Of a stretch of 64,000 nt of DNA, positions 1,696-46,366 are shown in pieces. Source of the stretch: Actinoplanes sp. L3-i22 (GTDB lineage: Bacteria > Actinomycetota > Actinomycetes > Mycobacteriales > Micromonosporaceae); assembly GCF_019704555.1 (NCBI RefSeq), contig NZ_AP024745.1:1856001-1920000 (forward strand). Reading direction: 5' to 3'. Position 1 is the first letter of the stretch, and each line of letters begins with the position of its first letter. The notes below the pieces were generated by a model. It did not search any database. It saw only the letters and a list, made by a program, of their open reading frames with translations, and was not told the DNA's origin. The position numbers and the translations under genes were made by a program.

Positions 1696-2457
1696 ATGAT
1701 TTCTCGTGTCCTGCTCGCCTCGGCGGGTGCCATGGCAACCGTACTGGCCGGCGCCACCGCGGCGGTCGCCGGCGACCGGGCCACCCCACCGCCGGGCACC
1801 GCCGACGCCTTCGCCGCGGCGACCGCGGTGGTCGCGACGATGCGGGTGTGCGTGGTGCGGAAGACCGGCGCCATGCGCTGGGTCTCCGCCGACACGACGA
1901 GCTGCCGGAGTGGCGAGACCATGCGGTCCTGGAACCAGATCGGCCTGCGCGGTGTCCCGGGCCTCCCCGGCGCCCCTGGCGCGCCCGGCGAGCCTGGCCC
2001 GGCCGGCTCGGTGGGCCCGTCGGGGCCGCCCGGTGCGTCCGGTCCGCAGGGCGCTACCGGCCCGGCCGGCGCTACCGGCGCGACCGGTCCCACGGGTGCT
2101 GCTGGTGCCACCGGCCCTGCTGGTGCCACGGGCCCTGCTGGTGCCCCCGGAATGATGGGTATGCCCGGGATCAGTCTCCCCGGTATCCCCGGTCCTGCCG
2201 GTCCCACGGGCCCCGCTGGTCCCGCCGGATCGATGAGCGTCGTCTCGGAACCTACGGTTCTGAACTCCGGCTCCACTACCTACGAGGTGACCTGTAGCTC
2301 GGGTCAGGCCATCGGCGTCAGCCTCGTCGTAGCCGCGGCGGATGCCGGCAAGTTGATCGGCAGCTACCGGCATGCCTCGATTCTCACCAAATGGGAGCTC
2401 ATCTTCTCGCCCGCCCTGTCGGTGAACGCCTCGGCATATACCTTGTGCGCCGCCTGA
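1696..2457 (+). CDS. Secreted collagen-like protein (Gly-X-Y repeats) in the murD slot
   Basis: 253 aa. Residues 1-26 look like a signal peptide (hydrophobic stretch ending AAVAGD). Residues 50-83 contain [14 protein letters not shown], a second Cys and SWNQIG, resembling the short two-Cys WNQ module that often precedes collagen repeats in bacterial proteins. Residues about 84-178 are some 30 Gly-X-Y triplets (VPG LPG APG ... PAG), rich in Pro, Ala and Thr, with one break at ISLPG. The last ~75 residues form a non-repetitive domain with two Cys (about 200 and 251). Such proteins can form collagen-type triple helices outside the cell; this function is inferred. The gene lies alone between hairpins at 1557 and 2494 and occupies the usual place of murD. 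The ATG at 1696 gives the signal peptide directly. Confidence 0.85.
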
Positions 2458-32951: not shown

Positions 32952-32987
32952 CCAGCTCTTTCCCCAAAACCTTCAAGATCAAATTCT

Positions 32988-33127
32988 TCTTTGCCTCGGT
33001 CCGCCGGGGTACAGATCGTCGCTCCCGCGGGGACCCTTCCGGGCCTCGCAGGGCGCGGGGCGCCCAAAAACGCGAGGCCCTCCAGGGCGGCGTCCGAGGG
33101 TGGTTGCGGTTTCAAAGGACCCACGCG
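32988..33127 (+). repeat. Structured dispersed repeat, copy 1
   Basis: About 140 bp, near-identical to the reverse complement of 34101-34240 and clearly related to 46076-46215. Core hairpin GGGCCTCGC / GCGAGGCCC at about 33040-33080 encloses an inner stem GGGCG/CGCCC. It begins 37 bp after the mocR-like stop, AT-rich end first. Confidence 0.85.
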
Positions 33128-33216
33128 ACGCCGCGCCCCACACCTCGCTCCGGCCGCACCTCCCGGCCCAGCCCGCCCGCGCCCGCGCTGCCCGCCCGAG
33201 CCGCCCGCTAGCGCCC

Positions 33217-33408
33217 GCCAGCGCCCGCCCGCGCCAGCGCCCGCCCGCGCCAGCGCCCGCCCGCGCCAGCGCCCGCCCGCGCCAGCGCCCGCCCGCGCCA
33301 GCGCCCGCCCGCGCCAGCGCCCGCCCGCGCCAGCGCCCGCCCGCGCCAGCGCCCGCCCGCGCCAGCGCCCGCCCGCGCCAGCGCCCGCCCGCGCCAGCGC
33401 CCGCCCGC
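33217..33408 (+). repeat. Twelve perfect 16-bp tandem repeats
   Basis: Unit GCCAGCGCCCGCCCGC is repeated 12 times without a mismatch, flanked by degenerate GC-only versions from about 33180 to 33430. Sixteen is not a multiple of three and no reading frame here has support, so this is a non-coding VNTR-like array. It lies inside the interval bounded by the inverted structured repeats. The rest of 32952-33552 holds no gene I can support. Confidence 0.95.
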
Positions 33409-33552
33409 GCCCGCGCCTGCTCCCGCGCCGCCCGAGCCGCGCCTCGCCCGGCCGCGCGCCGGCCGGCTCCGGCTGGTTCTTACGTTGTTATCGGGCTCTG
33501 GAACGACCTCGGGTGCCGGCCGGAGAGCGCGGTGCGGAGGGACGGCGGCTGG

Positions 33553-33891
33553 TCAGGCGGTTGGGCCCTGGTAGAGGCCGAAGCGGTTGCCGTCGGCGTC
33601 GAGCAGGGTCGCGATCAGGGGGCCGCCGACGTCGTGGATCGAGCGCTCCTCGGTGGCGCCGGCCGCGAGCAGCGACTCCACCTCGGCCGCGATGTCGTCG
33701 ACGTGCCAGAAGACGACCGGGCCGGCGGCGACGTCACCGTGCGGGTCGAGACCCAGCTCCGGGCCGCCTTCGGGCCGGAAGCCCACGTAGTAGGGCGCGT
33801 CGGCATACGGCTCGACCCCGAGCAACCTGGTGTACAGGGCCTTGGCAGCGTCCAGGTCCTTGACCGGGACGGTGATCGTGCGGATCGGCAT
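33553..33891 (-). CDS. VOC/glyoxalase-fold protein
   Basis: 112 aa. MPIRTITVPVKDLDAAKALYTRLLGVEPYADAPYYVGF is a typical vicinal-oxygen-chelate half-barrel opening, with VVFWHVDDIAAEVESLLAAGATEE and ATLLDADGNRFGLYQGP at the end. Single-domain members dimerise and bind metal; substrate unknown. ATG 33891 has GGGGGAG upstream; the longer open frame to 34128 begins inside repeat copy 2 and is rejected. The gene sits between inverted repeats. Confidence 0.88.
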   Translation of the reverse strand: MPIRTITVPVKDLDAAKALYTRLLGVEPYADAPYYVGFRPEGGPELGLDPHGDVAAGPVVFWHVDDIAAEVESLLAAGATEERSIHDVGGPLIATLLDADGNRFGLYQGPTA

Positions 33892-34100
33892 GTCTCCCCC
33901 TTCGTCACGTCGGACCCGTGCAACGTATGACGGACTCCGGCCGGGGCGGGCGACGATGAGCGAATCCGGCCGGTGCGCCCGGCTCTTCCGGGCCCGGGAA
34001 CAACGGCGAAAGCCGGCCGGCCGCGATGCGGAAGCGCACCCGGTCGTCCGGGTGGTCGATGAGGGCCGGCCCGCGCCGCCGGCCGGACCCCGGCGGCGCT

Positions 34101-34240
34101 CGCGTGGGTCCTTTGAAACCGCGACCACCCACGGACATCGCCCTGGAGGGTCTCGCGTTCTGGGCGCGCCAGCGCCCTGCGAGGCCCGGAAGGGTCCCCG
34201 CGGGAGCGACGATCTGTACCCCGGCGGACCGAGGCAAAGA
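34101..34240 (-). repeat. Structured dispersed repeat, copy 2
   Basis: Inverted relative to copy 1. The first ~70 bases of the element (minus strand) match copy 1 exactly, with scattered changes later. Core: GGGTCTCGC, inner stem GGGCGC-GCCA-GCGCCC, then GCGAGGCCC; the T keeps a G-U pair where copy 1 has C-G. It lies downstream of the acyl-CoA synthetase gene, AT-rich end nearest that gene. Confidence 0.85.
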
Positions 34241-34257
34241 AAGGTTTCAAGCAGCAG

Positions 34258-34286
34258 AAAGGCCGCCTCCGAGAGCAGAGGCGGCC
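34258..34286 (-). terminator. Rho-independent terminator of the acyl-CoA synthetase gene
   Basis: GGCCGCCTC (34261-34269) and GAGGCGGCC (34278-34286) form a perfect 9-bp stem with an 8-nt loop. Read on the minus strand it is followed by TTTCTG, 14 bp after the stop at 34300. Confidence 0.8.
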
Positions 34287-34299
34287 GTTCCGGAACGGG

Positions 34300-36123
34300 C
34301 TAGATCTGGGCGAGCGAGCCCTCGTACATCTTCTCGATCTGGCCGGCGAAGTTGGTCTCGACGCTGCGGCGCTTGATCTTCATCGACGGCGTGATCTCGC
34401 CGTTCTCGATGCTCAGGTCGCGGGGCAGGATGGTGAACTTCTTGACCGTCTCCCACCGGTTGAGCTTGCTGTTCAGCTCGGCCAGATAGCCCTCGACCAG
34501 CTTGTGCGTCTCCGGCGCGGCGACGATCTCCGCGTAGCTCTTGCCGGCGAGCGGCCCGTCGGCGGCCCAGCCGGCGATCGCGTCCTCGTCCAGGGTGATC
34601 AGCATGGTGACGAAGTTGCGGGACTGGCCGACGACGATCGCCTGCGACGTGTAGGGACAGACGGCCTTGAACGCGCCCTCGATCGCGCTCGGCGCGATGA
34701 ACTTGCCGCCGGACGTCTTGACCAGGTCCTTCTTGCGGTCGGTGATGCGCAGGAAGCCGTCCGCGTCCAGCTCGCCGATGTCGCCGGTGCGCAGGAAGCC
34801 GTCCTCGGTGAACGCTTCCGCGGTCGCCTCGGGCAGGTTGTGGTAGCCGCGCATCACCGGCGCGCCGCGCAGCAGCACCTCGCCGTCGGTGTCGATGCGG
34901 ACCTCGAGGTCGCCGAGCGCCTCACCGACCGAGCCGATCTTGAGGCGGCCGTGGCGGTTCACGAAGTTCGCCGCGGAGGCCTCGGTCATGCCGTAGCCCT
35001 CCAGGATCGGCAGGTTCGCCGCGGCGAAGAACTCGGAGATGTCCCGGCTGAGCGCGGCCGAGCCGCTGACCAGCACGCGCAGGTTGCCGCCGAGCCGGGA
35101 CTGCAGCTTCGAGAAGACCAGTTTCTCGGCGACCGCGTACTGCGCCTTGAGGCCGGCCGGGACCGGCTTGCCGGCCTGCTCGAGGGCGACCTTCTTCTTA
35201 CCGGTCGCGACGGCCCAGGTGAAGATCTTCGGCTTCAGGCCGGAACCGGAGAGGCCGCTGGTGACGGTCTTGTTGTAGACCTTCTCGAAGATCCGCGGCG
35301 GGGCGCACATCAGCGTCGGCCGGATCACGCCGAGCAGGTCGATCAGCTTGTCCACCCGGCCGTCGACGTAGGTCGGCACGCCCACGTGCACGATGCCGCA
35401 GAGCAGCGTCTTGCCGAACGCGTGCGACATCGGCAGCCACAGGTAGTGCAGGTCGGTGGGGGAGAACAGGCCGGTGCTCTCCTGGGCCACGCCCTCCCAG
35501 GTCCAGGCGCGGTGCAGCAGCTCGACGCCCTTGGGGCGGCCGGTGGTGCCGGAGGTGTAGATCAGCGTCGCGATGTGGTCCGGGGTCAGCTCGGCGACCA
35601 CGTCGTCGATCAGGCCCGGGTCCCGCTTGAGGGCCGCGGCGCCCAGCTCCTCCAGATCGGCCAGGGTGATCTGCGGCGGGGTGGCGCCGGCGTCGGCCGC
35701 GCCGTCGATCAGCACGACCTTGGTCAGGCTGGTCGTCGCGCCGGCGATCTTCAGCGCCTGCTTCGGGTTCTCCGCGATCAGCACCTTCGACCCGGAGTCG
35801 GACACGATGAACGTGGTGTCCTCCGGCTCGGTGGTCGGGTAGACCGTGGTGGCGGCCGCGCCGGCGGCGTTGATGCCGAGGTCGGCGAGGACCCACTCCA
35901 GCCGGGTGCTGGACAGGATCGCGACCCGGTCCTCCAGCCCGACGCCGAGCTCGCGCAGCCCGGCGCCGATCGCCGTGGCCCGCTCACCCACCTGGCGCCA
36001 GGTCAGCCAGCTCATCCCGGAGTCGTCCGCGTTCGGCCCGGCGAACGCCCGCGCGTCGGGGGTCTTGGCCACGCGCTGGAACAGCATGTCCGGGATCGAC
36101 CGGTAGGGAACCTCGAGAGCCAT
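34300..36123 (-). CDS. Long-chain acyl-CoA synthetase (AMP-binding, FadD15-like)
   Basis: 607 aa adenylate-forming enzyme activating fatty acids to acyl-CoA. TLIYTSGTTGRPKGVELLHR is the P-loop; YLWLPMSHAFGK, LEGYGMTEASAANF, FLRTGDIGELDADGFLRITDRKKDLVKTSGGK and the C-terminal PSMKIKRRSVETNF follow in normal order. Length and motifs fit bacterial long-chain (FACL) types. ATG 36123 is preferred over an upstream TTG at 36126; AAGGCGG lies before it. Monocistronic, with a clear terminator. Confidence 0.94.
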   Translation of the reverse strand: MALEVPYRSIPDMLFQRVAKTPDARAFAGPNADDSGMSWLTWRQVGERATAIGAGLRELGVGLEDRVAILSSTRLEWVLADLGINAAGAAATTVYPTTEPEDTTFIVSDSGSKVLIAENPKQALKIAGATTSLTKVVLIDGAADAGATPPQITLADLEELGAAALKRDPGLIDDVVAELTPDHIATLIYTSGTTGRPKGVELLHRAWTWEGVAQESTGLFSPTDLHYLWLPMSHAFGKTLLCGIVHVGVPTYVDGRVDKLIDLLGVIRPTLMCAPPRIFEKVYNKTVTSGLSGSGLKPKIFTWAVATGKKKVALEQAGKPVPAGLKAQYAVAEKLVFSKLQSRLGGNLRVLVSGSAALSRDISEFFAAANLPILEGYGMTEASAANFVNRHGRLKIGSVGEALGDLEVRIDTDGEVLLRGAPVMRGYHNLPEATAEAFTEDGFLRTGDIGELDADGFLRITDRKKDLVKTSGGKFIAPSAIEGAFKAVCPYTSQAIVVGQSRNFVTMLITLDEDAIAGWAADGPLAGKSYAEIVAAPETHKLVEGYLAELNSKLNRWETVKKFTILPRDLSIENGEITPSMKIKRRSVETNFAGQIEKMYEGSLAQI

Positions 36124-36250
36124 CAAGCGCCGCCTTCAAAACCTCAACGGGGGGACGTAACGTCGTTGTTACCGCAGGGTAATGGGATGGCGGTGACACG
36201 GCTAGAGCGCCCCGGAAACTGACGTCAATCCTAGTCGCTACGGTGAGCCC

Positions 36251-37141
36251 ATGGCTTTCCTGGTGATCGGCGGGACGGGTGTCGACACCGTGGTCCCGGT
36301 GGCGGATCTGCCGGTGCTCGGCGCGGACTCGGCGCGGCCCCGCGGCCCGATCGAGGACCATGTCTCGCACACCGGCACCTGCGTGGCCCTCGGGCTGCGC
36401 GCCCTGGGCGAGTCCGTGCAGGTCATCGACACGATCGGCGACGACGGCCCGGGGCGCCGGGTGATCGCCGCGTTCCGCGAGTGGGACATTCCGCTGCGGG
36501 TCGTGCCGGCCGCCGGCGGGACCCGGCGGGCGGTCAACCTGATGAGTCCGGACGGCCGGCGGCTGTCGCTGTACGACGGGCGGGACGTGCCCGGCTACCG
36601 GTTGCCGGTGGCGTACTACGAGCCGCTGCCGGCCGGGATCCGGCACGTGCACGTGACGATCATGGACTGGGCCCGGCATCTGCTGCCGTCGCTGCGGGCG
36701 GCCGGGGTGACCATCTCCACCGACCTGCACGACTGGGACGGGGCGAACCCGCACCACCGGGACTTCGCGCTCGGCGCGGACGTGGTGTTCGTCAGCGGGG
36801 TGGCCCTGCGGGACGGCGCGGCCCGGCGGATCCTGGCCGACGGGGTGGCCTCGCACGTGGTGGTGACCCGGGCCGCCGCCGGGGCGGACCTGTTCACCCG
36901 GGCCGGGATGACGCACCGGGACGCGGCCGACCCGGGCGGGCCGATCGTGGACTCGAACGGGGCCGGGGACGCGTTCGCCGCCGCCTTCCTGACCGCGTGG
37001 ACCGCGGGGAAGAGCGACGGCGAATGCCTGGCGGACGGGACGGTCGCGGGCGCCTACGCCTGCACCCGGACGGTCGGGGCGGATGCGTTCGTCACCGCGG
37101 AGGAGTTACGGACGAGAAGCGGACGGCTGTCAGAGCAGTGA
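36251..37141 (+). CDS. PfkB-family sugar kinase
   Basis: 296 aa ribokinase-like protein. GGTGVDTVVPV opens it, HTGTCVALGLRALGESVQVIDTIGDDGPG is the N-terminal substrate lid region, and VDSNGAGDAFAAAFLTAW is the C-terminal PfkB signature with the catalytic Asp (DxxGAGD; the usual DTT is DSN here). Substrate is not evident. TACGGT (36239-36244) 6 nt before the ATG suggests a leaderless message. Its last 12 bp overlap the stop end of the tiny secreted-peptide gene on the other strand. Confidence 0.9.
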   Translation: MAFLVIGGTGVDTVVPVADLPVLGADSARPRGPIEDHVSHTGTCVALGLRALGESVQVIDTIGDDGPGRRVIAAFREWDIPLRVVPAAGGTRRAVNLMSPDGRRLSLYDGRDVPGYRLPVAYYEPLPAGIRHVHVTIMDWARHLLPSLRAAGVTISTDLHDWDGANPHHRDFALGADVVFVSGVALRDGAARRILADGVASHVVVTRAAAGADLFTRAGMTHRDAADPGGPIVDSNGAGDAFAAAFLTAWTAGKSDGECLADGTVAGAYACTRTVGADAFVTAEELRTRSGRLSEQ

Positions 37142-37321
37142 GACGGCGGGGCTGCCGAGCAGCGACACCGCGGGATTGGTGAGCAGCGAGACGTCGCCGC
37201 CCGGGTTGAGCAGGGACACGCCCGGGTCCTTCGCGGCCGCCGGACCGGCCGCCACCCCGAGCGCACTTGCCACCACGAGCAGCACCACCGCTGCCCGGAA
37301 CCCGCCACGTCGGATTCTCAT
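37130..37321 (-). CDS. Tiny secreted peptide with four VSLL repeats
   Basis: 63 aa. MRIRRGGFRAAVVLLVVASALGV... is a textbook signal peptide, with likely cleavage after AAGPAAA near residue 30. The mature ~33 residues are essentially four copies of VSLL, separated by short turns: GVSLL NPGG, DVSLL TNP, AVSLL GSP, AVSLL at the very end. GAGGGGGA stands just before the ATG (37321), which strongly supports expression. No Cys. Repeated beta-prone hydrophobic strands with Asn/Gly/Pro turns suggest self-assembly, surface activity or a signalling peptide; this is inference. No family recognised. Confidence 0.78.
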   Translation of the reverse strand: MRIRRGGFRAAVVLLVVASALGVAAGPAAAKDPGVSLLNPGGDVSLLTNPAVSLLGSPAVSLL

Positions 37322-37424
37322 GTCATCCCCCTCGAGTTTCTTACTGAGCTACTGATGCTCCGTTCCTGAGCGTAGGCGCGGAACTACGCTGCCGGGCATC
37401 CTGGTTTGTCTATACCGTCGAGGC

Positions 37425-38816
37425 GTGGATCTGGTGATCGAGACCGGTCCGGGCCCGGGCGGGACGACCGCCGCGGTGTACCGGGCGTTGCGCGCGGCGA
37501 TCGCGGACGGCCGGCTGCCCGCCGGGCACCGGCTGCCGGCCAGCCGCGCGCTCGCCGCTGACCTGGGCGTCTCCCGGGGCAGCGTGGCCGGGGCGTACGA
37601 GCGGCTGGTCGCCGAGGGGCACCTGACCGCGCGGGTCGGGGCGGGAACGTTCGTCGCCGCGGCCCGCGCGCCCCGGAAGACCCCGCGCCCGGTGGCCGAC
37701 CCGCTGCGGCCGAGCCCCGGCTGGGCGGTCGACCCGGTGCCGACGAGTGGGGACGGGCCGCCCCCGCGGTACGACTTCCGGGTCGGCATCCCGGACGCCG
37801 GGCTCTTCCCGTTCGACACCTGGCGGCGGATGGTCGCCGCCGAGCTGCGGCTGCGGGCCAACGGGCCGGGGACGTACGCCGATCCGTACGGTCACCCGGC
37901 GTTGCGGGCCGCGATCGCCCGCTATCTCGGGTACGCCCGCTCGCTCCGGGCGACCGCCGGCGAGGTGCTGGTCACCAACGGGGCGCAGCACGCGTTCGAC
38001 CTGATCGGCCGGGTGCTGCTGCGGCCCGGGGACACGGTCGCGATGGAGGAGCCGGGATACCCGCCGGCCCGGGCGCTGTTCGCGTCGCTCGGCGCGCGGG
38101 TGGCCGGCGTCCCGGTCGACGGCGAGGGGCTGGTGGTGGACGCGCTGCCGGCGCACGCGCGGATCGTCTACGTCACGCCGTCGCACCAGTTCCCGCTCGG
38201 GCCGGTGCTCAGCCTGGACCGCCGCCGGCAGCTCCTGGACTGGGCGCGGCGCCGGCAGACCGCGATCGTGGAGGACGACTACGACAGCGAGTTCCGCTTC
38301 GGCAGCCGTCCGCTGGAGCCGTTGCGGGCGCTCGACCAGTGCGAACGGGTGCTCTACGTGGGGACGTTCTCGAAGAGCATGCTGCCCACGATCCGGACCG
38401 GGTTCATCCTCACCCCGCCCGGCCTGCGGCCCGCCCTGGCCACCGCCCGGCAGCTCACCGACGGCCACGGGCAGGTCGCCGTGCAGGCGGCGCTGGCCCG
38501 CTTCATCGAGGAGGGCGAGCTGGCCCGGCACGTGCGGCGCGCCCGGCGGGAGTACGCGGCCCGGCACGATCGGATCGTGGCGTTCCTGGGGCGGCTGCCG
38601 GGGTTGGACGTGGTGCCGTCGGCGGCCGGCCTGCACGTGACCGCGCTCGGCTCGCTCGTGACCGACATCTCCGAGAAATCGCGGCAACGCGGGCTAGCGA
38701 TCGACGACCTGAGCGCCTACGACGGCGGGCGCAGCGGCCTGGTCCTCGGCTTCGGCGCGGTGAACCCGGAATTGATCGACGAAGGCCTGACGATTCTGTC
38801 CGAATTTATCGGTTAG
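37425..38816 (+). CDS. Second MocR-type regulator
   Basis: 463 aa. GntR winged helix at residues about 14-80 (TTAAVYRALRAAIADGRLPAG ... LAADLGVSRGSVAGAYERLVAEGHL) then an aminotransferase-like domain with VLVTNGAQHAFDLIGRVLL, VTPSHQFPLGPVLS, IVEDDYDSEFRF and PLP lysine in YVGTFSKSMLPTIRTGF. GTG 37425 is 7 nt after TATACCGT, so possibly leaderless. Its last 123 bp are antisense to the 3' end of the permease gene, an obvious candidate target. Confidence 0.92.
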   Translation: MDLVIETGPGPGGTTAAVYRALRAAIADGRLPAGHRLPASRALAADLGVSRGSVAGAYERLVAEGHLTARVGAGTFVAAARAPRKTPRPVADPLRPSPGWAVDPVPTSGDGPPPRYDFRVGIPDAGLFPFDTWRRMVAAELRLRANGPGTYADPYGHPALRAAIARYLGYARSLRATAGEVLVTNGAQHAFDLIGRVLLRPGDTVAMEEPGYPPARALFASLGARVAGVPVDGEGLVVDALPAHARIVYVTPSHQFPLGPVLSLDRRRQLLDWARRRQTAIVEDDYDSEFRFGSRPLEPLRALDQCERVLYVGTFSKSMLPTIRTGFILTPPGLRPALATARQLTDGHGQVAVQAALARFIEEGELARHVRRARREYAARHDRIVAFLGRLPGLDVVPSAAGLHVTALGSLVTDISEKSRQRGLAIDDLSAYDGGRSGLVLGFGAVNPELIDEGLTILSEFIG

Positions 38817-40004
38817 CACCTGATAGGTCAGCGCGCCGGCCGCGAACCCCAGACTCAGCAGCGCCGGCCACCCGTTCAGCCACAGCAGGCCGCAGACCGC
38901 CACGAACGCGACCCCGGCCACCACCCGGGACCAGCCGCGGGGGAGCAGGCGCAGCGCCGCCGCCGTGCCGATCACGTAGACCAGCGTGAAGCAGCCGGTC
39001 ACCAGCAGCGCCGACCGCGCCACCGGCAGCCGCAGCAGCGCGCACCCGAGGCTGACCACGAGGATGACGGTGAGGGAGCGGCGCCGGCCCCCGAACACCC
39101 GGGCCGGCAGCGCGCCGTCCCGGGCCAGCGCCACTCCGAGCCGGCCGGCCCCCGCGAAGTACGCGTTCACCGCGCCCAGCGTCAGCACCACGGCGACCAC
39201 CGCGGTCACCGTCCGGACCGGCCCGCCGACGCCGATCGCCAGCAGATCCGCGAGCGGCGCCCGGCTGGTCGCCAGGCCGGGGCCGAGGGTCAGCACGCTG
39301 ACCGCGGCCACCGCCAGGTAGAGCACGCCGACCACGGCGACCGCGAGCATCGTGGCCCGGGGCACGTCGCGGCGCGGGTTCCGGTACTCCGCGGACAGCG
39401 ACGAGAGCGCCTCCCAGCCGGCGAAACCCCAGACCAGGATCGCCGCGGCGGCGCCCAGCCCGGCCCAGCCGTGCGGCGCGAACGGGGTCAGGTTCGCGAA
39501 CCTCAGGTGCGGCAGCGCGGCCAGCACGGTCACCACCAGCAGCAGGGCCAGGGTGCCGGTGAGCACCAGCTGCACACGGCCGGAAATGCGAAGACCGAAG
39601 AGATTCATGACGTACGCCGTGAGCACCACCCCGAGGAACGTCAGCAGCTCGGTGGTCCGGCCGCCGCCGAGCGCGTCCGCCACGTACCCACCGGTGAACG
39701 ACGTGGCGACCGGCGCGCCCAGTGGCACCGCGAAGAAGAAGCACCACCCCACGGCGGCGGACGCGCGTCGTCCGAAGGCCATGCCCGCGTACGTCGCCAC
39801 CCCGCCCCCGTCCGGGAAGCGCGCGCCGAGCGCCGCGAACGTCCAGGCCAGCGGGGCGGAGAGGAGGATCAGGGCGAGCCACGCGAGCAGCGCGGCCGGT
39901 CCCGCGGCCGCGGCGGCCAGCGCCGGCATGGAGATGAGCCCGGTGCCCAGCACGGCGCCGATCGACAGCGCCGTGCCCTGAGCCACCGAGAGTCGGGCGG
40001 TCAT
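38694..40004 (-). CDS. APC-family amino acid permease
   Basis: 436 aa with about twelve hydrophobic helices. SIGAVLGTGLISMPALAAAAAGPAALLAW is the TM1 region with the GxG unwound segment; FAGWEALSSLSAEYRNPRRDVPRAT is the conserved loop. Substrate is probably an amino acid or amine. The last ~40 residues (VLTDKFGQNRQAFVDQFRVHRAE...) are non-hydrophobic and are coded opposite the MocR 3' end. ATG 40004 has an inverted repeat 20 bp upstream. Likely controlled by the convergent MocR. Confidence 0.9.
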   Translation of the reverse strand: MTARLSVAQGTALSIGAVLGTGLISMPALAAAAAGPAALLAWLALILLSAPLAWTFAALGARFPDGGGVATYAGMAFGRRASAAVGWCFFFAVPLGAPVATSFTGGYVADALGGGRTTELLTFLGVVLTAYVMNLFGLRISGRVQLVLTGTLALLLVVTVLAALPHLRFANLTPFAPHGWAGLGAAAAILVWGFAGWEALSSLSAEYRNPRRDVPRATMLAVAVVGVLYLAVAAVSVLTLGPGLATSRAPLADLLAIGVGGPVRTVTAVVAVVLTLGAVNAYFAGAGRLGVALARDGALPARVFGGRRRSLTVILVVSLGCALLRLPVARSALLVTGCFTLVYVIGTAAALRLLPRGWSRVVAGVAFVAVCGLLWLNGWPALLSLGFAAGALTYQVLTDKFGQNRQAFVDQFRVHRAEAEDQAAAPAVVGAQVVDR

Positions 40005-40023
40005 GGGACGAACCTAGAGCCCG

Positions 40024-40072
40024 ATTGGCCCGTACGCTCAGGCCAATCTTGTGGGTTTTGAATGAGCCAATC
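40024..40072 (-). promoter_or_regulatory. ATTGGCC inverted repeat plus extra GCCAATC upstream of the permease
   Basis: ATTGGCC (40024-40030) and GGCCAAT (40041-40047) form a 7-bp inverted repeat with a 10-bp spacer; GCCAATC recurs at 40042-40048 and 40066-40072, 24 bp apart. The core GCCAAT resembles the repeats in front of the other MocR gene at 31.5 kb. A regulator site is likely; identity is inferred. Confidence 0.5.
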
Positions 40073-40697
40073 AGAACCCGAAACTGGCCCCGCGCAGTCG
40101 CTCGGCCACCGCCGGGTCGCCCTCGATCTGGACCCGGGCGATCCGCTGCCGCCCGGAGAAGAACAGCGCCAGCTCACCCGCGTCGCCGGTGATCCGCACC
40201 TGCGGGGCCGGGCCGGTGCGCACCGGCGGGAACCCGTCGGCGACCACCTCGGCAACCACGCCGGCCCGGCGCAGCGCCATCCGCGAGGTGAGCTTGCCGC
40301 TGCGCCAGAGCGCGGCCTGGTGCCCGGCGGGCAGCGGACGCGGCTCCCACGCCGGGGCGGCGCGGCGGACGTCCTCGTGGTGGATGAAGAACTCCAGGGT
40401 GTTGGCGAGACCATCGGTGAGCGGGTTGCTGACCGGGCTCCAGACCGGGGGCTGACGCACCTCGGCGATCAGGTCGGGGTACGGCAGCGCGGCCTTGGAC
40501 AGGCGCACCCGCTCACCGTAGGAGTGGAGTGCCGGGACGAGCATCCCGACCGAGGCGTCCGGGCGACGGTCCCGGATCACCAGATGAGCGGCCAGATCCC
40601 GGGTGGTCCACCCGGTGCACAGCGTCGGCGCGTCCGGGCCCTCGCGCAGCAGCAGGTCGGCGAGCAGCCGGCGTTCCTGGCGGGCGTAGTCGTTCAT
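40071..40697 (-). CDS. TIGR03085/maleylpyruvate isomerase-N-like protein
   Basis: 208 aa DinB-like helical bundle family. YARQERRLLADLLLREGPDAPTLCTGWTTRDLAAHLVIRDRRPD is highly typical of TIGR03085 proteins, which carry metal-binding His in the bundle; EFFIHHEDVRRAAPAW supplies further His. Often linked to mycothiol-using enzymes; substrate unknown. ATG 40697 overlaps the stop of the upstream Cys-motif ORF as ATGA, so the two are probably coupled. Confidence 0.9.
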   Translation of the reverse strand: MNDYARQERRLLADLLLREGPDAPTLCTGWTTRDLAAHLVIRDRRPDASVGMLVPALHSYGERVRLSKAALPYPDLIAEVRQPPVWSPVSNPLTDGLANTLEFFIHHEDVRRAAPAWEPRPLPAGHQAALWRSGKLTSRMALRRAGVVAEVVADGFPPVRTGPAPQVRITGDAGELALFFSGRQRIARVQIEGDPAVAERLRGASFGF

Positions 40698-41023
40698 CCA
40701 CCGATCGTATGCAGGATCACGTGCTCCCCGGTAACCGGAACGAGGCAGGTCCGTGCTGAGCACGCGGCGTAGCCCAGCCTGACCTGATAGCGATCGCCGT
40801 CCCCGGAGAACGCGCCGACCCGGGTCTTCCCGCCCGGGGCCGCATGGAGTCCCTCGCATCGATGATCATGCGGCGGGGGAGGCCGGCTGGTCAGGCCACT
40901 TGTCGCTGCCCGAATTTCCGGGGGCGGGGATTCGTGGGTGTAATCGTCACCACAATGTAAACACTGGGGTGGCGGCCACTCGTTCGGCAGGATGGGATCG
41001 GTAAGGCCGGATTCGCCGGTCAA
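40694..41023 (-). CDS. Possible small Cys-motif protein coupled to the TIGR03085 gene
   Basis: Up to 109 aa; start uncertain (a TTG at 41023). WPPPQCLHCGDDYTHE near residue 16 looks like the CxHCG-YTH motif of small actinobacterial zinc-ribbon-like proteins, and YAACSARTCLVPVTGEHVIL near the end supplies two more Cys. The middle is not conserved-looking. The stop overlaps the next ATG as ATGA, which argues for translation. Codon use is less GC-biased than neighbours, so a decaying gene is possible. Confidence 0.42.
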   Translation of the reverse strand: MTGESGLTDPILPNEWPPPQCLHCGDDYTHESPPPEIRAATSGLTSRPPPPHDHRCEGLHAAPGGKTRVGAFSGDGDRYQVRLGYAACSARTCLVPVTGEHVILHTIGG

Positions 41024-41045
41024 TACTTACCAGTCAGGTAGGACA

Positions 41046-42818
41046 TTGAGCAGCAGGGCCAGCCGCGACGTGCTGGGACGGGGTCTGCGGGTGCTCGGGC
41101 ACGCGATCCGTACCGAACCGCGCCTCTTCACCATCGGGACCATCGGCAGCAGCCTGTTCGGGCTGCTCATCATCGCGAACTCGTACGTCGTCGGCTGGGT
41201 GATCGGCGACATCGTCGTCCCCGCCTTCGCCGCGCATCGCGCCCGCACCGGCGAGCTCGCCCTGGTCGCCGCGGTCTTCCTGGGGATCAGCGCGCTGCGC
41301 GTGGCAAGCATCTTCGGCCGCCGCCTCGGCGCCGGGTACATGCAGTTCCACCTCCAGGCGCGCTATCGCCGGGCGGTGACCGGGCGTTACCTGGCGCTGC
41401 CGCCGGCCTGGCACCAGCGGCACGCCACCGGCACGCTGCTCTCCAACGCGAACTCGGACGTCGAGGCGGCCTGGGGCCCGATCGCCCCGTTCCCGTTCGC
41501 GGTCGGCACGATCGTCATGCTGATCGGCGCGCTGATCTCGCTGTTCGTCACCGACTGGGTGCTCGCGCTGGTCGGCGCCACGCTGTTCCCCGGATTGTTC
41601 GGGCTCAACCTGGTCTACTCCCGGCGGATGTCGCCGCGGCAGATCCGGGTCCAGCAGAACCGGGCGAAGGTCAGCGCGGTCGCGCACGAGAGCTTCGACG
41701 GCGCGCTGGTGGTCAAGACGATGGGCCGGGAGGCCGACGAGTCGCGCCGGTTCGGCGTCTTCGTCGACGAGCTGCGCGACTCGCTGATCGCGGTGGGCCG
41801 GCTGCGCGGCCTGTTCGACCCGCTGATGGACAGCCTGCCCAGCCTCGGCACGCTCGCCGTGCTGCTGCTCGGCGCGTGGCGGATGCAGACCGGCGCGATC
41901 ACGGTCACCGAGCTGGTCAGCGTCGCGTTCCTGTTCACCGTGCTGGCGTTCCCGGTGCGCGCGATCGGCTGGGTGGTCGCCGAGCTGCCGCGCAGCGTGG
42001 CCGGCTGGGACCGGGTGCAGGCGGTGCTCGGCGCCGAGGGCGATCTCGCCTACGGCGAGGGTTCGCTGCCCGGTCACGGCCCGGCCGAGTTGCGGTTCGA
42101 GCACGTCAACTTTCGGTACGGCGACGGCCCCGCGGTCCTGCACGACGTCAGTTTCACCGTGCCGGCCGGAAAGACCGTGGCGCTCGTCGGCGCGACCGGC
42201 TCGGGCAAGTCGACGATCGCCTCGCTCGCCGTGCGCCTGGTCGACCCGGAGTCCGGCGGCGTCGGCCTGGACGGGGTGAAGCTGCCGGATCTGGCGCTGT
42301 CCGCGCTGGCCGCCGCGACCGCGCTGGTGCCGCAGATCCCGTTCGTGTTCGACGACACGGTGCGCGGCAACATCGCGCTGGACCGGCCCGCGGTCGACGA
42401 CGACGCGGTCCGGTCCGCGATCGGGCTGGCCCAGGCCGAGCGGTTCGTCGACCGGCTGCCGGCCGGGCTGGACACCGCGGTCGGCGAGCGTGGCACCTCG
42501 CTCTCCGGCGGGCAGCGGCAGCGGCTCACGCTGGCCCGCGCGCTGGCCGGCAAGCCCCGCCTGCTGGTGCTCGACGACGCCACCAGCGCGGTCGACCCGC
42601 GGGTGGAGGCGGACATCCTGAACGCGCTGCGCGGCGGGGACGCGGACGCGTCGATCCTGGTGGTGGCGTACCGGCGGGCCACCATCGCGCTCGCCGACGA
42701 GGTGGTCTTCCTCGATCGCGGCCGGGTGGTGGCGACCGGGACGCACGCCGAGCTGATGACGTTCCACGCGGGCTACCAGGCGCTGGTCACGGCGTACGAG
42801 AAGGAAGCAGAGAAGTGA
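41046..42818 (+). CDS. ABC exporter half-transporter A (degenerate-site subunit)
   Basis: 590 aa from TTG 41046 (an ATG at 40992 would add 18 residues). Six hydrophobic helices in residues ~25-300, then an ATPase domain: Walker A GATGSGKST, signature LSGGQRQRLTLARAL, Walker B LLVLDDATSAVD with Asp in place of the catalytic Glu, and an H-loop reading VVAYRRATIA with Tyr for His. These changes mark the inactive-type site of a heterodimeric exporter. GTGA overlap with subunit B. Substrate unknown, perhaps a drug, lipid or peptide. Confidence 0.93.
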   Translation: MSSRASRDVLGRGLRVLGHAIRTEPRLFTIGTIGSSLFGLLIIANSYVVGWVIGDIVVPAFAAHRARTGELALVAAVFLGISALRVASIFGRRLGAGYMQFHLQARYRRAVTGRYLALPPAWHQRHATGTLLSNANSDVEAAWGPIAPFPFAVGTIVMLIGALISLFVTDWVLALVGATLFPGLFGLNLVYSRRMSPRQIRVQQNRAKVSAVAHESFDGALVVKTMGREADESRRFGVFVDELRDSLIAVGRLRGLFDPLMDSLPSLGTLAVLLLGAWRMQTGAITVTELVSVAFLFTVLAFPVRAIGWVVAELPRSVAGWDRVQAVLGAEGDLAYGEGSLPGHGPAELRFEHVNFRYGDGPAVLHDVSFTVPAGKTVALVGATGSGKSTIASLAVRLVDPESGGVGLDGVKLPDLALSALAAATALVPQIPFVFDDTVRGNIALDRPAVDDDAVRSAIGLAQAERFVDRLPAGLDTAVGERGTSLSGGQRQRLTLARALAGKPRLLVLDDATSAVDPRVEADILNALRGGDADASILVVAYRRATIALADEVVFLDRGRVVATGTHAELMTFHAGYQALVTAYEKEAEK

Positions 42819-44578
42819 GCACGGCTGAGGGAACGATGGCCACGGTCAAGCGGGGGCTGGCGCTGTCGCCGGAGCTGCGGACCGGGCTGGGCGGCACGAT
42901 CGTCCTGGCCACGCTGCAGATGGCCGGCCGGGTCGCGGTGCCGATCGCCGTGCAGCAGGGCATCGACCACGGCATCCGCGCGGCCGGCGGCCCCGACCTG
43001 GGCGTGGTCGGCGAGATCGTGCTGTTCACGCTCTGCGCGCTGCTGATCTCCACGCTGTGCGGGTACCTGATGACCCGGCGGCTCTTCACGGTCAGCGAGA
43101 CCGCGCTGGCCGCGCTGCGGTCCCGGGCGTTCCGGCACATCCACGACCTGTCGATGCTGCACCAGCAGTCCGAGCGGCGCGGCTCGATGGTCTCCCGGGT
43201 GACCAGCGACGTCGACCAGATCTCCCAGTTCCTGCAGTTCGGCGGGGTGCAGCTGTTGCTCGCCTCGGGCCAGCTGCTGGTCTCGGCCGCGGTGATGTTC
43301 GTCTACTCCTGGCAGCTGGCGCTGGTCGTGCTGGTCGCGTTCGGCCCGGCGGTCGGCGTGATCCGGCTGTTCCAGACCCGGCTGCGGGCCGTCTACCAGG
43401 CGTCCCGGGAGCGGACCGGGGTGATGCTCGGCGCCATCGCGGAGAGTGTGGTGGGCGCCACGGTGATCCGGGCCTACGGGGTCTCCGGCCGCACCCAGGC
43501 CCGGCTGGACACCTCGATCGAGGATCTCCGGCAGGCCCAGCAGAAGGCGCTGAAGACCAGCGTGACCAGCTTCTCCAGCGGCGAGATCGGGGCCGGGCTG
43601 GCGATGGCCGGGGTGGTCGTGGTCGGGGTGCTGCTCGGGGCGGACGGGGATCTGACCGTCGGGCAGCTGACCGCGTTCCTGTTCCTGGTGACGCTCTTCA
43701 TCCAGCCGGTGCAGATCGCCACCGACATGCTGAACGAGGCGCAGAACGCGGTGGCCGGCTGGCGCCGGATCCTGGACGTGCTGGACGTCGAGCCGGACGT
43801 GGCCGACCCGGACGACCGGGGCGTGCCGCTGCCGGCCGGGCCGCTGTCGGTGCGCTTCGCCGACGTCTCGTTCCGGTATCCGGGCGGCCCGATCGTCCTG
43901 TCGGACGTCGATCTCGAGCTGGCGGCGCGGCGGAAGTATGCCGTGGTGGGGGAGACCGGCAGCGGGAAGACCACGTTCGCCAAGCTGCTCACCCGGCTGA
44001 TGGATCCGGCCGCGGGCGAGGTGCTGCTCTCCGGGACGCCACTGACCTCGGTGCAGTTCTCGTCGCTGCGGTCGCGGGTGGTGATGGTCCCACAGGACGG
44101 GTTCCTCTTCGACGCCACCATCGCGGAGAACATCCGCTTCGCCGAGCCGGCGCTCACCGACGGGCAGCTGCTCGACGCGTTCACCGAGCTGGGGCTGGCC
44201 GACTGGCTGGGTGGTCTGCCGGCCGGGCTGGAGACCCCGGTGGGGGAGCGCGGGGAGGCGCTCAGCGTCGGGGAACGGCAGCTGGTGGCGCTGGTCCGGG
44301 CGTACGTGGCGGACCCCGACCTGCTGGTGCTGGACGAGGCGACCAGCGCGGTCGATCCGGCCACCGAGGTGCGCCTGCAGCACGCGCTGGACCTGGTCAC
44401 CCGCGGCCGGACCACGGTGGCCATCGCCCATCGACTGTCCACCGCGGAGGCCGCGGACGAGGTGATCGTCGTGGACGCGGGCCGCGTCGTGCAACGCGGC
44501 CCGCACGCCCAGCTCGTCGCCGAGCCGGACTCCATCTACGCAAAGCTCTACGCCAGCTGGCTTGAACAGACACGCTGA
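42815..44578 (+). CDS. ABC exporter half-transporter B (catalytic-site subunit)
   Basis: 587 aa from GTG 42815 (ATG 42836 also possible). Six-helix membrane domain, then Walker A GETGSGKTTFAKLL, signature ALSVGERQLVALVRAY (LSVGE replaces LSGGQ), Walker B LLVLDEATSAVD with the catalytic Glu, and H-loop VAIAHRLSTAEAADE. Its normal Walker A/B pair with subunit A's normal LSGGQ, while its odd LSVGE faces A's degenerate Walker B, a fully consistent asymmetric heterodimer. A two-tier hairpin follows the stop. Confidence 0.94.
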   Translation: MSTAEGTMATVKRGLALSPELRTGLGGTIVLATLQMAGRVAVPIAVQQGIDHGIRAAGGPDLGVVGEIVLFTLCALLISTLCGYLMTRRLFTVSETALAALRSRAFRHIHDLSMLHQQSERRGSMVSRVTSDVDQISQFLQFGGVQLLLASGQLLVSAAVMFVYSWQLALVVLVAFGPAVGVIRLFQTRLRAVYQASRERTGVMLGAIAESVVGATVIRAYGVSGRTQARLDTSIEDLRQAQQKALKTSVTSFSSGEIGAGLAMAGVVVVGVLLGADGDLTVGQLTAFLFLVTLFIQPVQIATDMLNEAQNAVAGWRRILDVLDVEPDVADPDDRGVPLPAGPLSVRFADVSFRYPGGPIVLSDVDLELAARRKYAVVGETGSGKTTFAKLLTRLMDPAAGEVLLSGTPLTSVQFSSLRSRVVMVPQDGFLFDATIAENIRFAEPALTDGQLLDAFTELGLADWLGGLPAGLETPVGERGEALSVGERQLVALVRAYVADPDLLVLDEATSAVDPATEVRLQHALDLVTRGRTTVAIAHRLSTAEAADEVIVVDAGRVVQRGPHAQLVAEPDSIYAKLYASWLEQTR

Positions 44579-44655
44579 CCAGGTTTTACCTGGTGAGATG
44601 GTGTGTCGCTCGCCCCGGCCGCAACCGCGACCGGGGCGAGAAACCCGCCATCTCA
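44578..44655. terminator. Nested hairpins between convergent ABC and S4 genes
   Basis: First hairpin ACCAGGT-TTT-ACCTGGT at 44578-44594. Then an outer stem TGAGATGG/CCATCTCA (44594-44601, 44648-44655) encloses a 10-bp stem CTCGCCCCGG/CCGGGGCGAG (44609-44618, 44631-44640). It fills the gap between two convergent genes, so bidirectional termination is likely even without a U-run. Confidence 0.6.
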
Positions 44656-44669
44656 GCGATGCATGAGCT

Positions 44670-45278
44670 TTATCGCGCGTAGTACTCGACGACGAGCTGC
44701 TCGTCGCAGAGCACCGGGACCTCGGTGCGCACCGGCACCCGGATCACGGTGGTGCGCAGCTCCTCCAGGACGGTCGACAGGTAGGGCGCGGTCGGCCCGT
44801 CGTTGTGCGCGCCGGTCGCCGCGATCTGGAACGGCGGCTTCTGCCGGCTCGTCTCCTTGACCTCGATGACCTGGCCCGGCTTGAGCTTGTAGCCCGGCCG
44901 GTCCACCTTCTTGCCGTCCACCGTGAAGTGACCGTGCACGACCAGCTGACGAGCCTGGTAGATGGTGCGGGTGAAGCCGGCCCGGAAGACGGTGGCGTCG
45001 AGACGGCGCTCCAGCAGGGTGACCATGGTCTCGCCGGTCTTGCCCTCGGCCTGGTGGGCGGCGTCGTACGCGGCCCGCATCTGGACTTCGCTGATGTTGT
45101 ACTGGTGCCGCAGACGCTGCTTCTCCAGCAGCCGGACCTGGTAGTCCGAGCTCTTGCGCCGGCCGCGGCCGTGCACGCCCGGCGGGAACGGCCGCCGCTC
45201 GAAGTACTTCACACACTTGCGGGTGAGAGGGATGCCGAGCGCCCGGGAGAGCTTGGCTTTGGGTCGCGAGTTGTTCAC
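44670..45278 (-). CDS. rpsD: 30S ribosomal protein S4, stand-alone copy lacking the Cys zinc cluster
   Basis: 202 aa. NNSRPKAKLSRALG, then FERRPFPPGVHGRGRRKSSDYQVRLLEKQRLRHQYNISE, the S4 RNA-binding domain (LLERRLDATVFRAGFTRTIYQARQLVVHGHFTVDGKKVD) and CDEQLVVEYYAR at the C-terminus. It resembles the lone S4 of Streptomyces and has no N-terminal Cys cluster. It is outside any ribosomal operon; actinomycetes usually also have an S4 gene near rpoA, so this may be a second copy. GTG 45278 has AGGAGAT 7 nt upstream. Its promoter region contains iron boxes. Confidence 0.93.
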   Translation of the reverse strand: MNNSRPKAKLSRALGIPLTRKCVKYFERRPFPPGVHGRGRRKSSDYQVRLLEKQRLRHQYNISEVQMRAAYDAAHQAEGKTGETMVTLLERRLDATVFRAGFTRTIYQARQLVVHGHFTVDGKKVDRPGYKLKPGQVIEVKETSRQKPPFQIAATGAHNDGPTAPYLSTVLEELRTTVIRVPVRTEVPVLCDEQLVVEYYAR

Positions 45279-45297
45279 GCCGGATCTCCTGTTACGG

Positions 45298-45331
45298 TTA
45301 GCCTTGCCTAACTTAGGTAAGCCTAACCGGT
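45298..45331. promoter_or_regulatory. Overlapping iron boxes (DtxR/IdeR/DmdR-type)
   Basis: TTAGGTAAGCCTAACCGGT at 45313-45331 matches the iron-box pattern TWAGGTWAGSCTWACCTWA at 16 of 19 positions. A weaker match, TTAGCCTTGCCTAACTTAG, starts at 45298, and the centre CTTGCCTAA-C-TTAGGTAAG (45303-45321) is itself nearly palindromic. They lie between the S4 and HugZ-like starts, 20 bp from the former and 18 bp from the latter, so one regulator could control both under iron sufficiency. Confidence 0.72.
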
Positions 45332-45348
45332 GCCCGGAGGTGCTCGAC

Positions 45349-46074
45349 ATGCAACCCAGTCCCGCCGAGATCGCGCGTACTCTCGCCGCCGGTCACCTGC
45401 CCGCCGTCGCCCACATCGCCTGCCACCCCGGACCGCTTCCGGTCCGGCACGTGACCGACGCCCAGGGGCGCCCGCTGCTGCTCGTGCCGACCGGGAGCAC
45501 GCTGGTCACGGCGCTGCGGCCGCAGCCGGGGAACGATGACACCGCGCTGGTTCTCGACATCCGGGACGTCCCGCCGATGTCCACGTCGCCGGCGCTCGGC
45601 CGGGTCTGGGTCTCCGGCTGGGCCGCTCGCCTCACCGGCGACGAGGCCCGCGCCGCCGCGCTGGACTACGCCGACACCGACGCCTGCGGAGATCTGCTGG
45701 ACGTCGGCGGGACCCAGGCGCTGTACCGGATGGACGTGGCCGAGGTGCGCTTCGAGCGCACCGAGAAACTGGTCGAGATCGACCCGGACGACTACGCCGA
45801 GGCGTCCCCGGACCCGCTGCGGGCCATCGAGTTCGACCTGATCGCGGACCTGGCCGATCACCACATGACCGAGATGGGCGACTACGTGCGCCGGCAGCTC
45901 GGCAAGGCCGCCCGGCCGGGCGACGAGCCCAAGGTGGTCCGCCTGGACCGCTACGGCTTCCTGGTCCGGATGGGCTCGCGCAGCGCCCGGCTGGCCTTCC
46001 CGCGCCCGGTGACGGACCGCCACGACCTGGCCCACCTGCTGCACCCGATCCTGTGCGGTCGTTGCTCGGCGTAG
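45349..46074 (+). CDS. HugZ-like/DUF2470 protein, probable haem or iron utilisation
   Basis: 241 aa. An N-terminal FMN-binding-type split barrel (residues ~15-135, LPAVAHIACHPGPLPVRHVTDAQGRPLLLVP ... LVLDIRDVPPM) is followed by a DUF2470 domain (DPLRAIEFDLIADLADHHMTEMGDYVRRQLG ... VRLDRYGFLVRMG ... ARLAFPRPVTD). HugZ-type proteins degrade haem to release iron. The tail ends HPILCGRCSA with a CxxC. ATG 45349 has GGAGG 8 nt upstream and iron boxes just beyond, supporting iron-repressed expression. Reaction inferred. Confidence 0.82.
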   Translation: MQPSPAEIARTLAAGHLPAVAHIACHPGPLPVRHVTDAQGRPLLLVPTGSTLVTALRPQPGNDDTALVLDIRDVPPMSTSPALGRVWVSGWAARLTGDEARAAALDYADTDACGDLLDVGGTQALYRMDVAEVRFERTEKLVEIDPDDYAEASPDPLRAIEFDLIADLADHHMTEMGDYVRRQLGKAARPGDEPKVVRLDRYGFLVRMGSRSARLAFPRPVTDRHDLAHLLHPILCGRCSA

Positions 46075-46075
46075 G

Positions 46076-46215
46076 GGGTTTTCCGCAACCACCCGCGGAC
46101 GTCGCCCTTGCGGGCCTCGCGTTCTGGGCGCGCCAGCGCCCTGCGAGGGTCGGAAGGGTCCCCGCGGGAGCGGCGGTCAGTTATCGGCCGCAGCCGAGGC
46201 AATAAAAAAAGATTT
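46076..46215 (-). repeat. Structured dispersed repeat, copy 3
   Basis: Same element as at 32988 and 34101 but more diverged: on the minus strand a ~20-bp segment after TTGCCTCGG is replaced, while GCTCCCGCGGGGACCCTTCC and the hairpin core (outer CCTCGC/GCGAGG type, inner GGGCGC-TGGC-GCGCCC) are kept. Its AT-rich end (run of seven A at 46204-46210) points to the gene at 46367-48355, as with copies 1 and 2 relative to their genes. Confidence 0.78.
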
Positions 46216-46312
46216 TGAAAGGCTCGGGATCCTCTCTCCCTCCTTCTGCCGCCGTCGGGTGGGGGGATCCCGTTCGCCCCGTCCGAAGGTGCCGCGGAGG
46301 GCGGGGTAACGC

Positions 46313-46352
46313 AAAAGGCGGGCAGCCCCGTGCCGGGGGCTGCCCGCCTTTT
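46313..46352. terminator. 17-bp perfect terminator hairpin
   Basis: AAAAGGCGGGCAGCCCC (46313-46329) pairs with GGGGCTGCCCGCCTTTT (46336-46352) around a 6-nt loop. Terminal A and T runs make it a bidirectional rho-independent terminator, 14 bp past the stop of the minus-strand gene at 46367. Confidence 0.92.
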
Positions 46353-46366
46353 CGCGTGCCGGCGGA

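What the first reader, a model, noticed from the sequence alone, without database searches (positions are those of the whole stretch)
32988..46215. A ~140-bp structured repeat in three copies, always downstream of a gene in the same orientation
Copies at 32988-33127 (+), 34101-34240 (-) and 46076-46215 (-) share a nested hairpin: outer CTCGC/GCGAG and inner GGGCGC/GCGCCC. Changes between copies keep most pairing (for example C-G to U-G). Each lies just after a gene with its AT-rich end towards that gene's stop. It may be a REP/BIME or MITE-like element, or a 3' RNA element affecting mRNA ends.
Basis: seen in the sequence. Interest (0 to 1): 0.7.

Follow-up and report, generated by a model that had tools for sequence, protein, structure and literature searches.

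The report
Shuffling hairpin repeat at gene ends
The three copies belong to a family of nearly 200 small hairpin-forming DNA elements scattered at gene ends in an Actinoplanes genome; related species carry many of them at the same places, yet copies within one genome seem to overwrite one another in short blocks while the base pairing of the hairpin is kept.

Summary
The own genome has 178 exact 12-mer cores (control 0), 192 with a 16-mer at up to 1 mismatch. A covariance model finds the family in 45 of 67 Actinoplanes genomes and in none of the other 43 genera sampled in its family; Rfam has no match. The inner hairpin is well supported: 11 of 14 stem pairs change on both sides; within A. cyaneus four of five varying pairs have r2 0.84-1.0 (fifth 0.10), unpaired columns average 0.06. 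Unexpected: elements sit at the same gene junctions in different species, but own/A. cyaneus orthologues are no more alike than shuffled pairs (0.761 v 0.759, n=31), while copies within own (0.88) and A. cyaneus (0.82) are. Within those genomes alleles over 15 bp apart are nearly unlinked (r2 0.02-0.06). Short-tract copying between fixed sites fits best. Closely related species do not show this contrast. 'Always downstream' is 93 of 117; 63 of these lie between convergent genes. RAYT mobilisation and canonical terminators are not supported. Function is unsettled; a 3'-end barrier to convergent or antisense transcription is my guess.

The parts
32975..33128 (+). copy c1 with AT-rich leader, starting 24 nt after the stop (32951) of a GntR/aminotransferase-type gene
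33041..33080 (+). c1 inner hairpin, the part supported by covariation
   Evidence: read; structure
34100..34256 (-). copy c2 with leader (leader edge by eye), downstream of an AMP-binding enzyme gene (34300-36123, -)
34148..34187 (-). c2 inner hairpin
   Evidence: read; structure
34261..34286 (-). terminator-like hairpin between the stop of the AMP-binding gene and c2
46076..46223 (-). copy c3 with leader (edges by eye), between convergent genes 45451-46074 (+, DUF2470) and 46367-48208 (-, no Pfam match)
46112..46151 (-). c3 inner hairpin
   Evidence: read; structure
46313..46353 (.). strong GC hairpin flanked by AAAA and TTTT, terminator-like on both strands, between the 46367 gene and c3
   Evidence: read directly; this stretch was not scanned

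Best explanation
The copies are members of a family of dispersed structured elements found only in Actinoplanes among the genomes searched: AT-rich leader, conserved CGCTCCCGC block, inner hairpin of about 40 nt, variable right tail. They sit at gene 3' ends, above all between convergent genes. SHOWN by calculation: sites shared between species; homogenisation in own and A. cyaneus; near linkage equilibrium within these genomes; preserved pairing of the inner hairpin. INFERRED: homogenisation is by short-tract (about 10-15 bp) gene conversion or template switching between dispersed copies, and selection keeps the pairing. GUESSED (about 0.3): the element acts as a nucleic-acid barrier at the 3' end, most likely limiting convergent or antisense transcription into the gene, since it is commonest between convergent genes with its AT-rich end at the stop codon, and its inner stem tolerates mispairs that would be G-U on the complementary strand.
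For: Copy number with control. Spread: 45 of 67 Actinoplanes at E<=1e-3; 40 of 250 family genomes, 1 of 44 genera (at most 14 candidates scored per genome). Covariation: 114 cells changed on both sides v 46.9 shuffled, 0/500; genus-wide 226 v 77.9, 0/500, 11 of 14 main-stem pairs. Within-genome linkage: paired columns r2 0.94 (own, one pair) and 0.84-1.0 for four of five (A. cyaneus) against 0.046 and 0.057 for unpaired columns 8-45 apart. Shared sites: partners in 119 own copies for 37 of 66 A. cyaneus, 11 of 18 G038, 10 of 20 G037, 7 of 15 G027, 3 of 5 G060, 3 of 3 A. liguriensis, 1 of 4 G040. Homogenisation. Linkage decay in own: r2 0.64 (1-5 bp), 0.33 (5-15), 0.02-0.03 beyond; 72 module combinations in 119 copies. 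Convergent placement 63 of 115 v 5 of 21 window gaps over 150 bp, p=0.016. Inner stem C-A 170 v G-T 4 over 276 elements.
Against: The outer helices show more G-U than C-A in the given orientation (269 v 22 in A3, 247 v 128 in A4), opposite to the inner stem, so the strand is not settled. Helix 2 has no two-sided change (0 of 10 pairs). Within-species identity does not exceed between-species identity inside some groups: G037/G038 0.84 within and between, G029/G001 0.79 between v 0.78 and 0.80, G060 0.76 within v 0.80 with A. liguriensis (3-20 copies each). For G037/G038 orthologues are slightly nearer than shuffled pairs (0.861 v 0.847, p=0.10). In G037 (20 copies) linkage shows no clear decay (0.14 to 0.07). 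Left module and right-end block are not fully independent in own (A 14/10, B 50/8). Sites are gained or lost: at sdhB the element was seen in 3 of 30 genomes read. The element is not a canonical terminator on either strand. No expression data.
Confidence: 0.5

Rival explanations
1. A non-autonomous mobile element (REP/BIME or MITE type) that spreads by transposition, lands in the same gene-end hot spots independently in each species, and so looks species-specific.
For: High copy number, intergenic placement, species-wise subfamilies, presence/absence at sdhB; in G038 and G027 one copy each shares its place with own only in the opposite orientation.
Against: Orientation agrees in 49 of 50 own/A. 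cyaneus same-place pairs (11 of 16 with G038, 10 of 14 with G037, 6 of 8 with G027, where most opposite pairs are the second element of a two-element gap). 18 of 31 one-to-one own/A. cyaneus pairs agree within 10 bp. Alleles are nearly unlinked beyond 15 bp, whereas a spreading lineage makes linked subfamilies. No Y1 transposase in own, G001, G007, G027, G029, G037, G039, G042, G043, G060.
Confidence: 0.2
2. Old fixed elements whose sequence is set by selection from a co-evolving trans-acting partner, so species differ without copying between sites.
For: Strongly conserved 5' block across the genus; near independence of sites.
Against: Multi-base alleles are shared by many dispersed copies (left module B 82 and A 31 of 119), and paired states that look neutral differ in frequency between species; that suggests copying of blocks.
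Confidence: 0.15
3. The compensatory changes come from quasi-palindrome template switching (one arm copied onto the other) and not from selection for structure.
For: Long imperfect palindrome; two-sided changes with hardly any G-T intermediates in the main stem.
Against: Does not by itself explain shared gene-end positions or conserved unpaired blocks; C-A mispairs are tolerated and G-T hardly at all (170 v 4).
Confidence: 0.15
4. A 3'-UTR RNA element in the sense transcript (stability or termination).
For: AT-rich end close to the stop of the same-strand gene; 93 of 117; G-U pairs of the outer helices in the sense strand; 45 own copies follow the stop within 60 nt, with no room for another terminator.
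Against: 10 of 25 own copies with a 60-120 nt gap lie beyond a terminator-like hairpin of the gene (control 2 of 25), though 0 of 17 in A. cyaneus; inner-stem mispairs point to the other strand; terminator-like itself in 1 of 119 own copies on the sense strand.
Confidence: 0.25

Closest known systems
REP/BIME/REPIN with RAYT (TnpA-REP)
   Same: Many extragenic imperfect palindromes in one genome. Evolution of REP by gene conversion was raised in a 1988 review title (Higgins et al., seen only in the reference list of PMC3116915).
   Different: About 110-150 nt and not a short stem; no GTAG-led stem noticed; no Y1 transposase in ten element-rich genomes; sites shared between species and copies in near linkage equilibrium in own and A. 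cyaneus.
ERIC/IRU of enterobacteria (recalled, from no call)
   Same: Intergenic imperfect palindrome of similar size, dispersed, without a gene of its own.
   Different: Different bacterial lineage; no ERIC consensus was compared here.
Intrinsic terminator
   Same: GC hairpin soon after stop codons, frequent between convergent genes.
   Different: No T tract: scored terminator-like in 1 of 119 (sense) and 3 of 119 (complement) own copies, 0 and 2 of 66 in A. cyaneus; far longer, with conserved sequence.
Rfam families
   Same: Covarying structured element.
   Different: No match at gathering score in the window; over 12 loci one match at E<=1 (E 0.077), outside the element.

Membership tests
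REP/RAYT elements | Y1 (TnpA-REP) transposase in genomes with many copies | tested here: not met
   PF01797 in 21 of 67 genomes; 0 in own and in G001, G007, G027, G029, G037, G039, G042, G043, G060. Some element-bearing genomes have it, e.g. G038 5, G040 3, G014 2 short matches
REP/RAYT elements | Short stem preceded by a GTAG-type tetranucleotide | tested here: inconclusive
   Not seen by eye in alignments A2 and A3; no formal search. Feature taken from passages of PMC8266576
MITE | Terminal inverted repeats and target duplications | tested here: inconclusive
   Edges fade gradually; one locus read in 30 genomes gave no clean duplication by eye; no systematic search
Intrinsic terminator | Hairpin followed by a T tract | tested here: not met
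   1 of 119 own copies sense, 3 of 119 complement; A. cyaneus 0 and 2 of 66
Known Rfam family | Reaches a family's gathering score | tested here: not met
   0 in the window; none over 12 loci
Conserved structured element | Compensatory changes beyond shuffled and slid controls | tested here: met
   for the inner hairpin; outer helices mixed (helix 1: 4 of 6 pairs with two-sided change but 79% paired; helix 2: 0 of 10)
Integron attC sites (considered) | Tandem arrays of cassettes separated by attC | tested here: not met
   The 100 sites listed are spread over 8 Mb, with a few close pairs; R-box sequences not tested

The most novel reading that the evidence does not exclude
Nearly 200 dispersed, positionally fixed elements behave as a freely recombining population inside one chromosome, exchanging blocks of about 10-15 bp through a dedicated or hairpin-driven copying process (the folded single strand, possibly a complement-strand transcript, serving as donor), while selection keeps the hairpin because it guards 3' ends between convergent genes.
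Probability: 0.15. Interest if true: 0.9.

Novelty: new variant of a known kind. Interest (0 to 1): 0.72.

Why it matters
It would be an unusually clean bacterial case of concerted evolution of dispersed non-coding repeats: sites fixed across species, alleles shuffled in blocks of about 10-15 bp, base pairing retained. This would make the old question whether REP-like sequences evolve by gene conversion directly testable and would offer a natural assay for very short-tract conversion. It would also add a genus-wide structured element that Rfam lacks.

Tried and rejected
Plasmid collection, distant blastn: no match. Genome-contig scan with an 18-mer: 86 stretches, 75 from A. cyaneus or A. liguriensis and 11 from unrelated organisms, none of which matched the element profile. 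RNAalifold on 57 own copies gave 0 two-sided pairs, since own copies vary little; the wider set was needed. Outer helices: energy supports them, covariation is mixed and within-genome linkage shows nothing for them. Strand from mispairs: inner stem and outer helices disagree, left open. Replichore bias of orientation: none (43/41 v 43/51, p=0.55). Reverse transcriptases (PF00078): in 45 of 67 genomes, own one weak match; by eye no strict link with the element. Literature: seven searches; no title or abstract listed describes such an Actinoplanes repeat; listings were capped and the library holds open-licence papers only. In RepRanger (PMC12306157, passages) the word Actinoplanes does not occur in the main text. 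A coding reading of the leader was considered and dropped, since single-base indels break it.

Rows dropped: 8 incomplete copies before (196 to 188); one A. cyaneus copy (L136) left out when typing A3, which holds 72 of the 73 drawn from the 188; four duplicate loci and two weak opposite-strand matches before (276 elements in all). Own statistics use 119 copies: the sites listed up to 8.1 Mb plus BLAST hits beyond, out of 178-192. One search counted 38 pairs, some ambiguous; supersede it.
Full report
CHECK. The window is 1,856,001-1,920,000 of a single 12,014,766-base contig. BLAST with c2 gave 43 places, with 40 of 221 candidates scored. The 12-mer GGGACCCTTCCG occurs 86 times forward and 92 reverse, reversed control 0; a 16-mer with up to one mismatch occurs 192 times. 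Density of the 12-mer is 17-22 per Mb up to 3.9 Mb and beyond 8.1 Mb, but 3-8 per Mb between.

ANATOMY. In 117 own copies anchored on GGGACCC, conservation reaches back to about -60. The stretch 40-60 nt before the core is AT-rich (GC 0.32, against 0.65-0.70 further out). Then come a two-allele left module, the strongly conserved CGCTCCCGCGGGGACC, the inner hairpin, a right block and a fading tail. Single copies fold only moderately better than shuffles.

SPREAD. The 16-mer search pointed mainly to G014 (127; A. cyaneus by contig match) and G031 (17; A. liguriensis), with exact hits also in G027, G037 and G038. A covariance model (R1, 72 copies) widened this to 45 of 67 Actinoplanes genomes and 40 of 250 family genomes, 1 of 44 genera. 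Diverged copies keep the rod with different letters; L217, for example, has a 15-base arm and its exact complement.

STRUCTURE. On A3 (72 copies) 114 cells changed on both sides against 46.9 in shuffles, 0 of 500; slid controls reached at most 38. On A4 (94 matches, 90 distinct) it was 226 against 77.9, 0 of 500, slid controls at most 71, with 11 of 14 pairs of the main stem changed on both sides (this alignment is fitted to the model). The outer helices are mixed: helix 1 has 4 of 6 such pairs but 79% pairing, helix 2 none of 10. Shuffles ignore relatedness, so the within-genome test matters more. Own: the one pair varying on both sides (46-80) has r2 0.94, unpaired columns 8-45 apart mean 0.046 (n=169). 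A. cyaneus: four of five varying pairs 0.84-1.0, the fifth (46-80) 0.10; unpaired mean 0.057, 95th percentile 0.28 (n=482). For the outer helices no paired columns stood out in this way.

POSITIONS. Flank comparison finds a copy within 350 bp of the expected place among 119 own copies for 37 of 66 A. cyaneus, 11 of 18 G038, 10 of 20 G037, 7 of 15 G027, 3 of 5 G060, 3 of 3 A. liguriensis and 1 of 4 G040 copies, although own has 178-192. Same orientation: 49 of 50 pairs with A. cyaneus, 11 of 16 with G038, 10 of 14 with G037, 6 of 8 with G027; most opposite pairs are the second element of a two-element gap, but one G038 and one G027 copy have only an opposite partner. c2 of the window has partners in A. 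cyaneus, G037, G038 and G027, same orientation, within 4 bp; c1 has one in A. cyaneus, 22 bp off; none was found for c3 among the loci in hand.

SEQUENCE. One-to-one same-orientation orthologues are as different as shuffled pairs: own/A. cyaneus 0.761 v 0.759 (31 pairs, p=0.22), own/G038 0.774 v 0.776 (9), own/G037 0.765 v 0.764 (10), own/G027 0.777 v 0.786 (6); G037/G038 0.861 v 0.847 (9, p=0.10). Flanks are 84-90% identical. Mean identity within own is 0.88 and within A. cyaneus 0.82, between them 0.76. Limit: among close relatives the contrast vanishes (G037, G038 and G027 0.81-0.84 within and 0.82-0.84 between; G001 with G029 or G043 likewise), and G060, with 5 copies, is no more alike within (0.76) than to others. 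So homogenisation is seen between groups, not between close species. The odds given above were kept, since the claim rests on the own/A. cyaneus contrast.

LINKAGE. Among 119 own copies mean r2 falls from 0.64 at 1-5 bp to 0.33 at 5-15 and 0.02-0.03 beyond; 111 of 111 column pairs 60-120 apart show all four combinations. A. cyaneus (66 copies): 0.35, 0.23, then 0.06 to 0.03. G037 (20 copies): 0.14 falling only to 0.07, no clear decay. 72 five-module combinations occur in 119 own copies. Left module (31 copies A, 82 B, 6 unclassed) and right-end block are not fully independent (A 14/10, B 50/8). Multi-base blocks travel as units, which recurrent point mutation does not readily make; short-tract copying does. 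That step is inference.

CONTEXT. With a home-made ORF caller: own 63 convergent, 28 tandem after a same-strand gene, 16 tandem the other way, 8 divergent, 2 overlapping a gene, 2 without a called downstream gene. 48 of 91 same-strand stops lie within 80 nt of the profile start; the right-hand gap is wider. The convergent excess against the window's own gaps over 150 bp is significant but rests on 21 gaps (63 of 115 v 5 of 21, p=0.016). In the 60-120 nt class 10 of 25 own copies lie beyond a terminator-like hairpin of the gene (control 2 of 25), above 120 nt 5 of 23 (control 3); in A. cyaneus 0 of 17 and 1 of 12 (control 0 and 2). So this point is not general.

GAIN AND LOSS. At sdhB 30 of 67 genomes were read over 420 nt past the stop: by eye the element follows a terminator-like hairpin in own, A. 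cyaneus and G037 and is not seen in the other 27, A. liguriensis, G038 and G027 included. In three of the 30 rows (G044, G052, G065) my stop finder took another stop.

STRAND. Over 276 elements the inner stem has 3564 standard pairs, 170 C-A/A-C, 4 G-T/T-G and 126 others; in species-by-pair combinations 35 against 3. C-A becomes G-U on the complement, so a complement-strand RNA (or single-stranded DNA) is favoured for the inner stem. The outer helices show the opposite: 269 G-U v 22 C-A in A3, 247 v 128 in A4. I therefore leave the strand open.

MECHANISM. Transposition by RAYT is not supported. Short-tract conversion fits linkage, homogenisation and fixed sites. A barrier at 3' ends fits the placement but is untested. 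No RNA data were available.

Noticed in passing
window 33206-33430: A GC-rich tandem array with 16-bp period (consensus like CAGCGCCCGCCCGCGC) lies right after c1. Tandem arrays within 350 bp are commoner on the right side of elements than on the left: own 26 v 11 of 119, A. cyaneus 15 v 3 of 65.
   Followed up: partly
L067, L082, L108, L127, L142 and other A. cyaneus loci: A second palindrome follows many A. cyaneus elements; its centre TTATTCGTGCCTCATAA lies within 600 bp on the right of 18 of 66 elements, often about 122 bp away, and on the left of none; 0 in the own loci in hand.
   Followed up: partly
G001, G002, G007, G027, G029, G034, G037, G039, G043 and others: A recurrent reverse-transcriptase class (PF00078 positions about 9-203, open frames of roughly 440-700 aa) occurs in many Actinoplanes genomes, by eye without strict link to the element.
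   Followed up: no
window 2030-2228: Short direct repeats in steps of 9 bases, suggesting a Gly-rich collagen-like coding stretch; not translated (D2).
   Followed up: no
L237-L266 (sdhB locus): A hairpin like CCGGCACAACGGCGTGCCGG downstream of sdhB recurs, with variants, in many of the 30 Actinoplanes genomes read.
   Followed up: no
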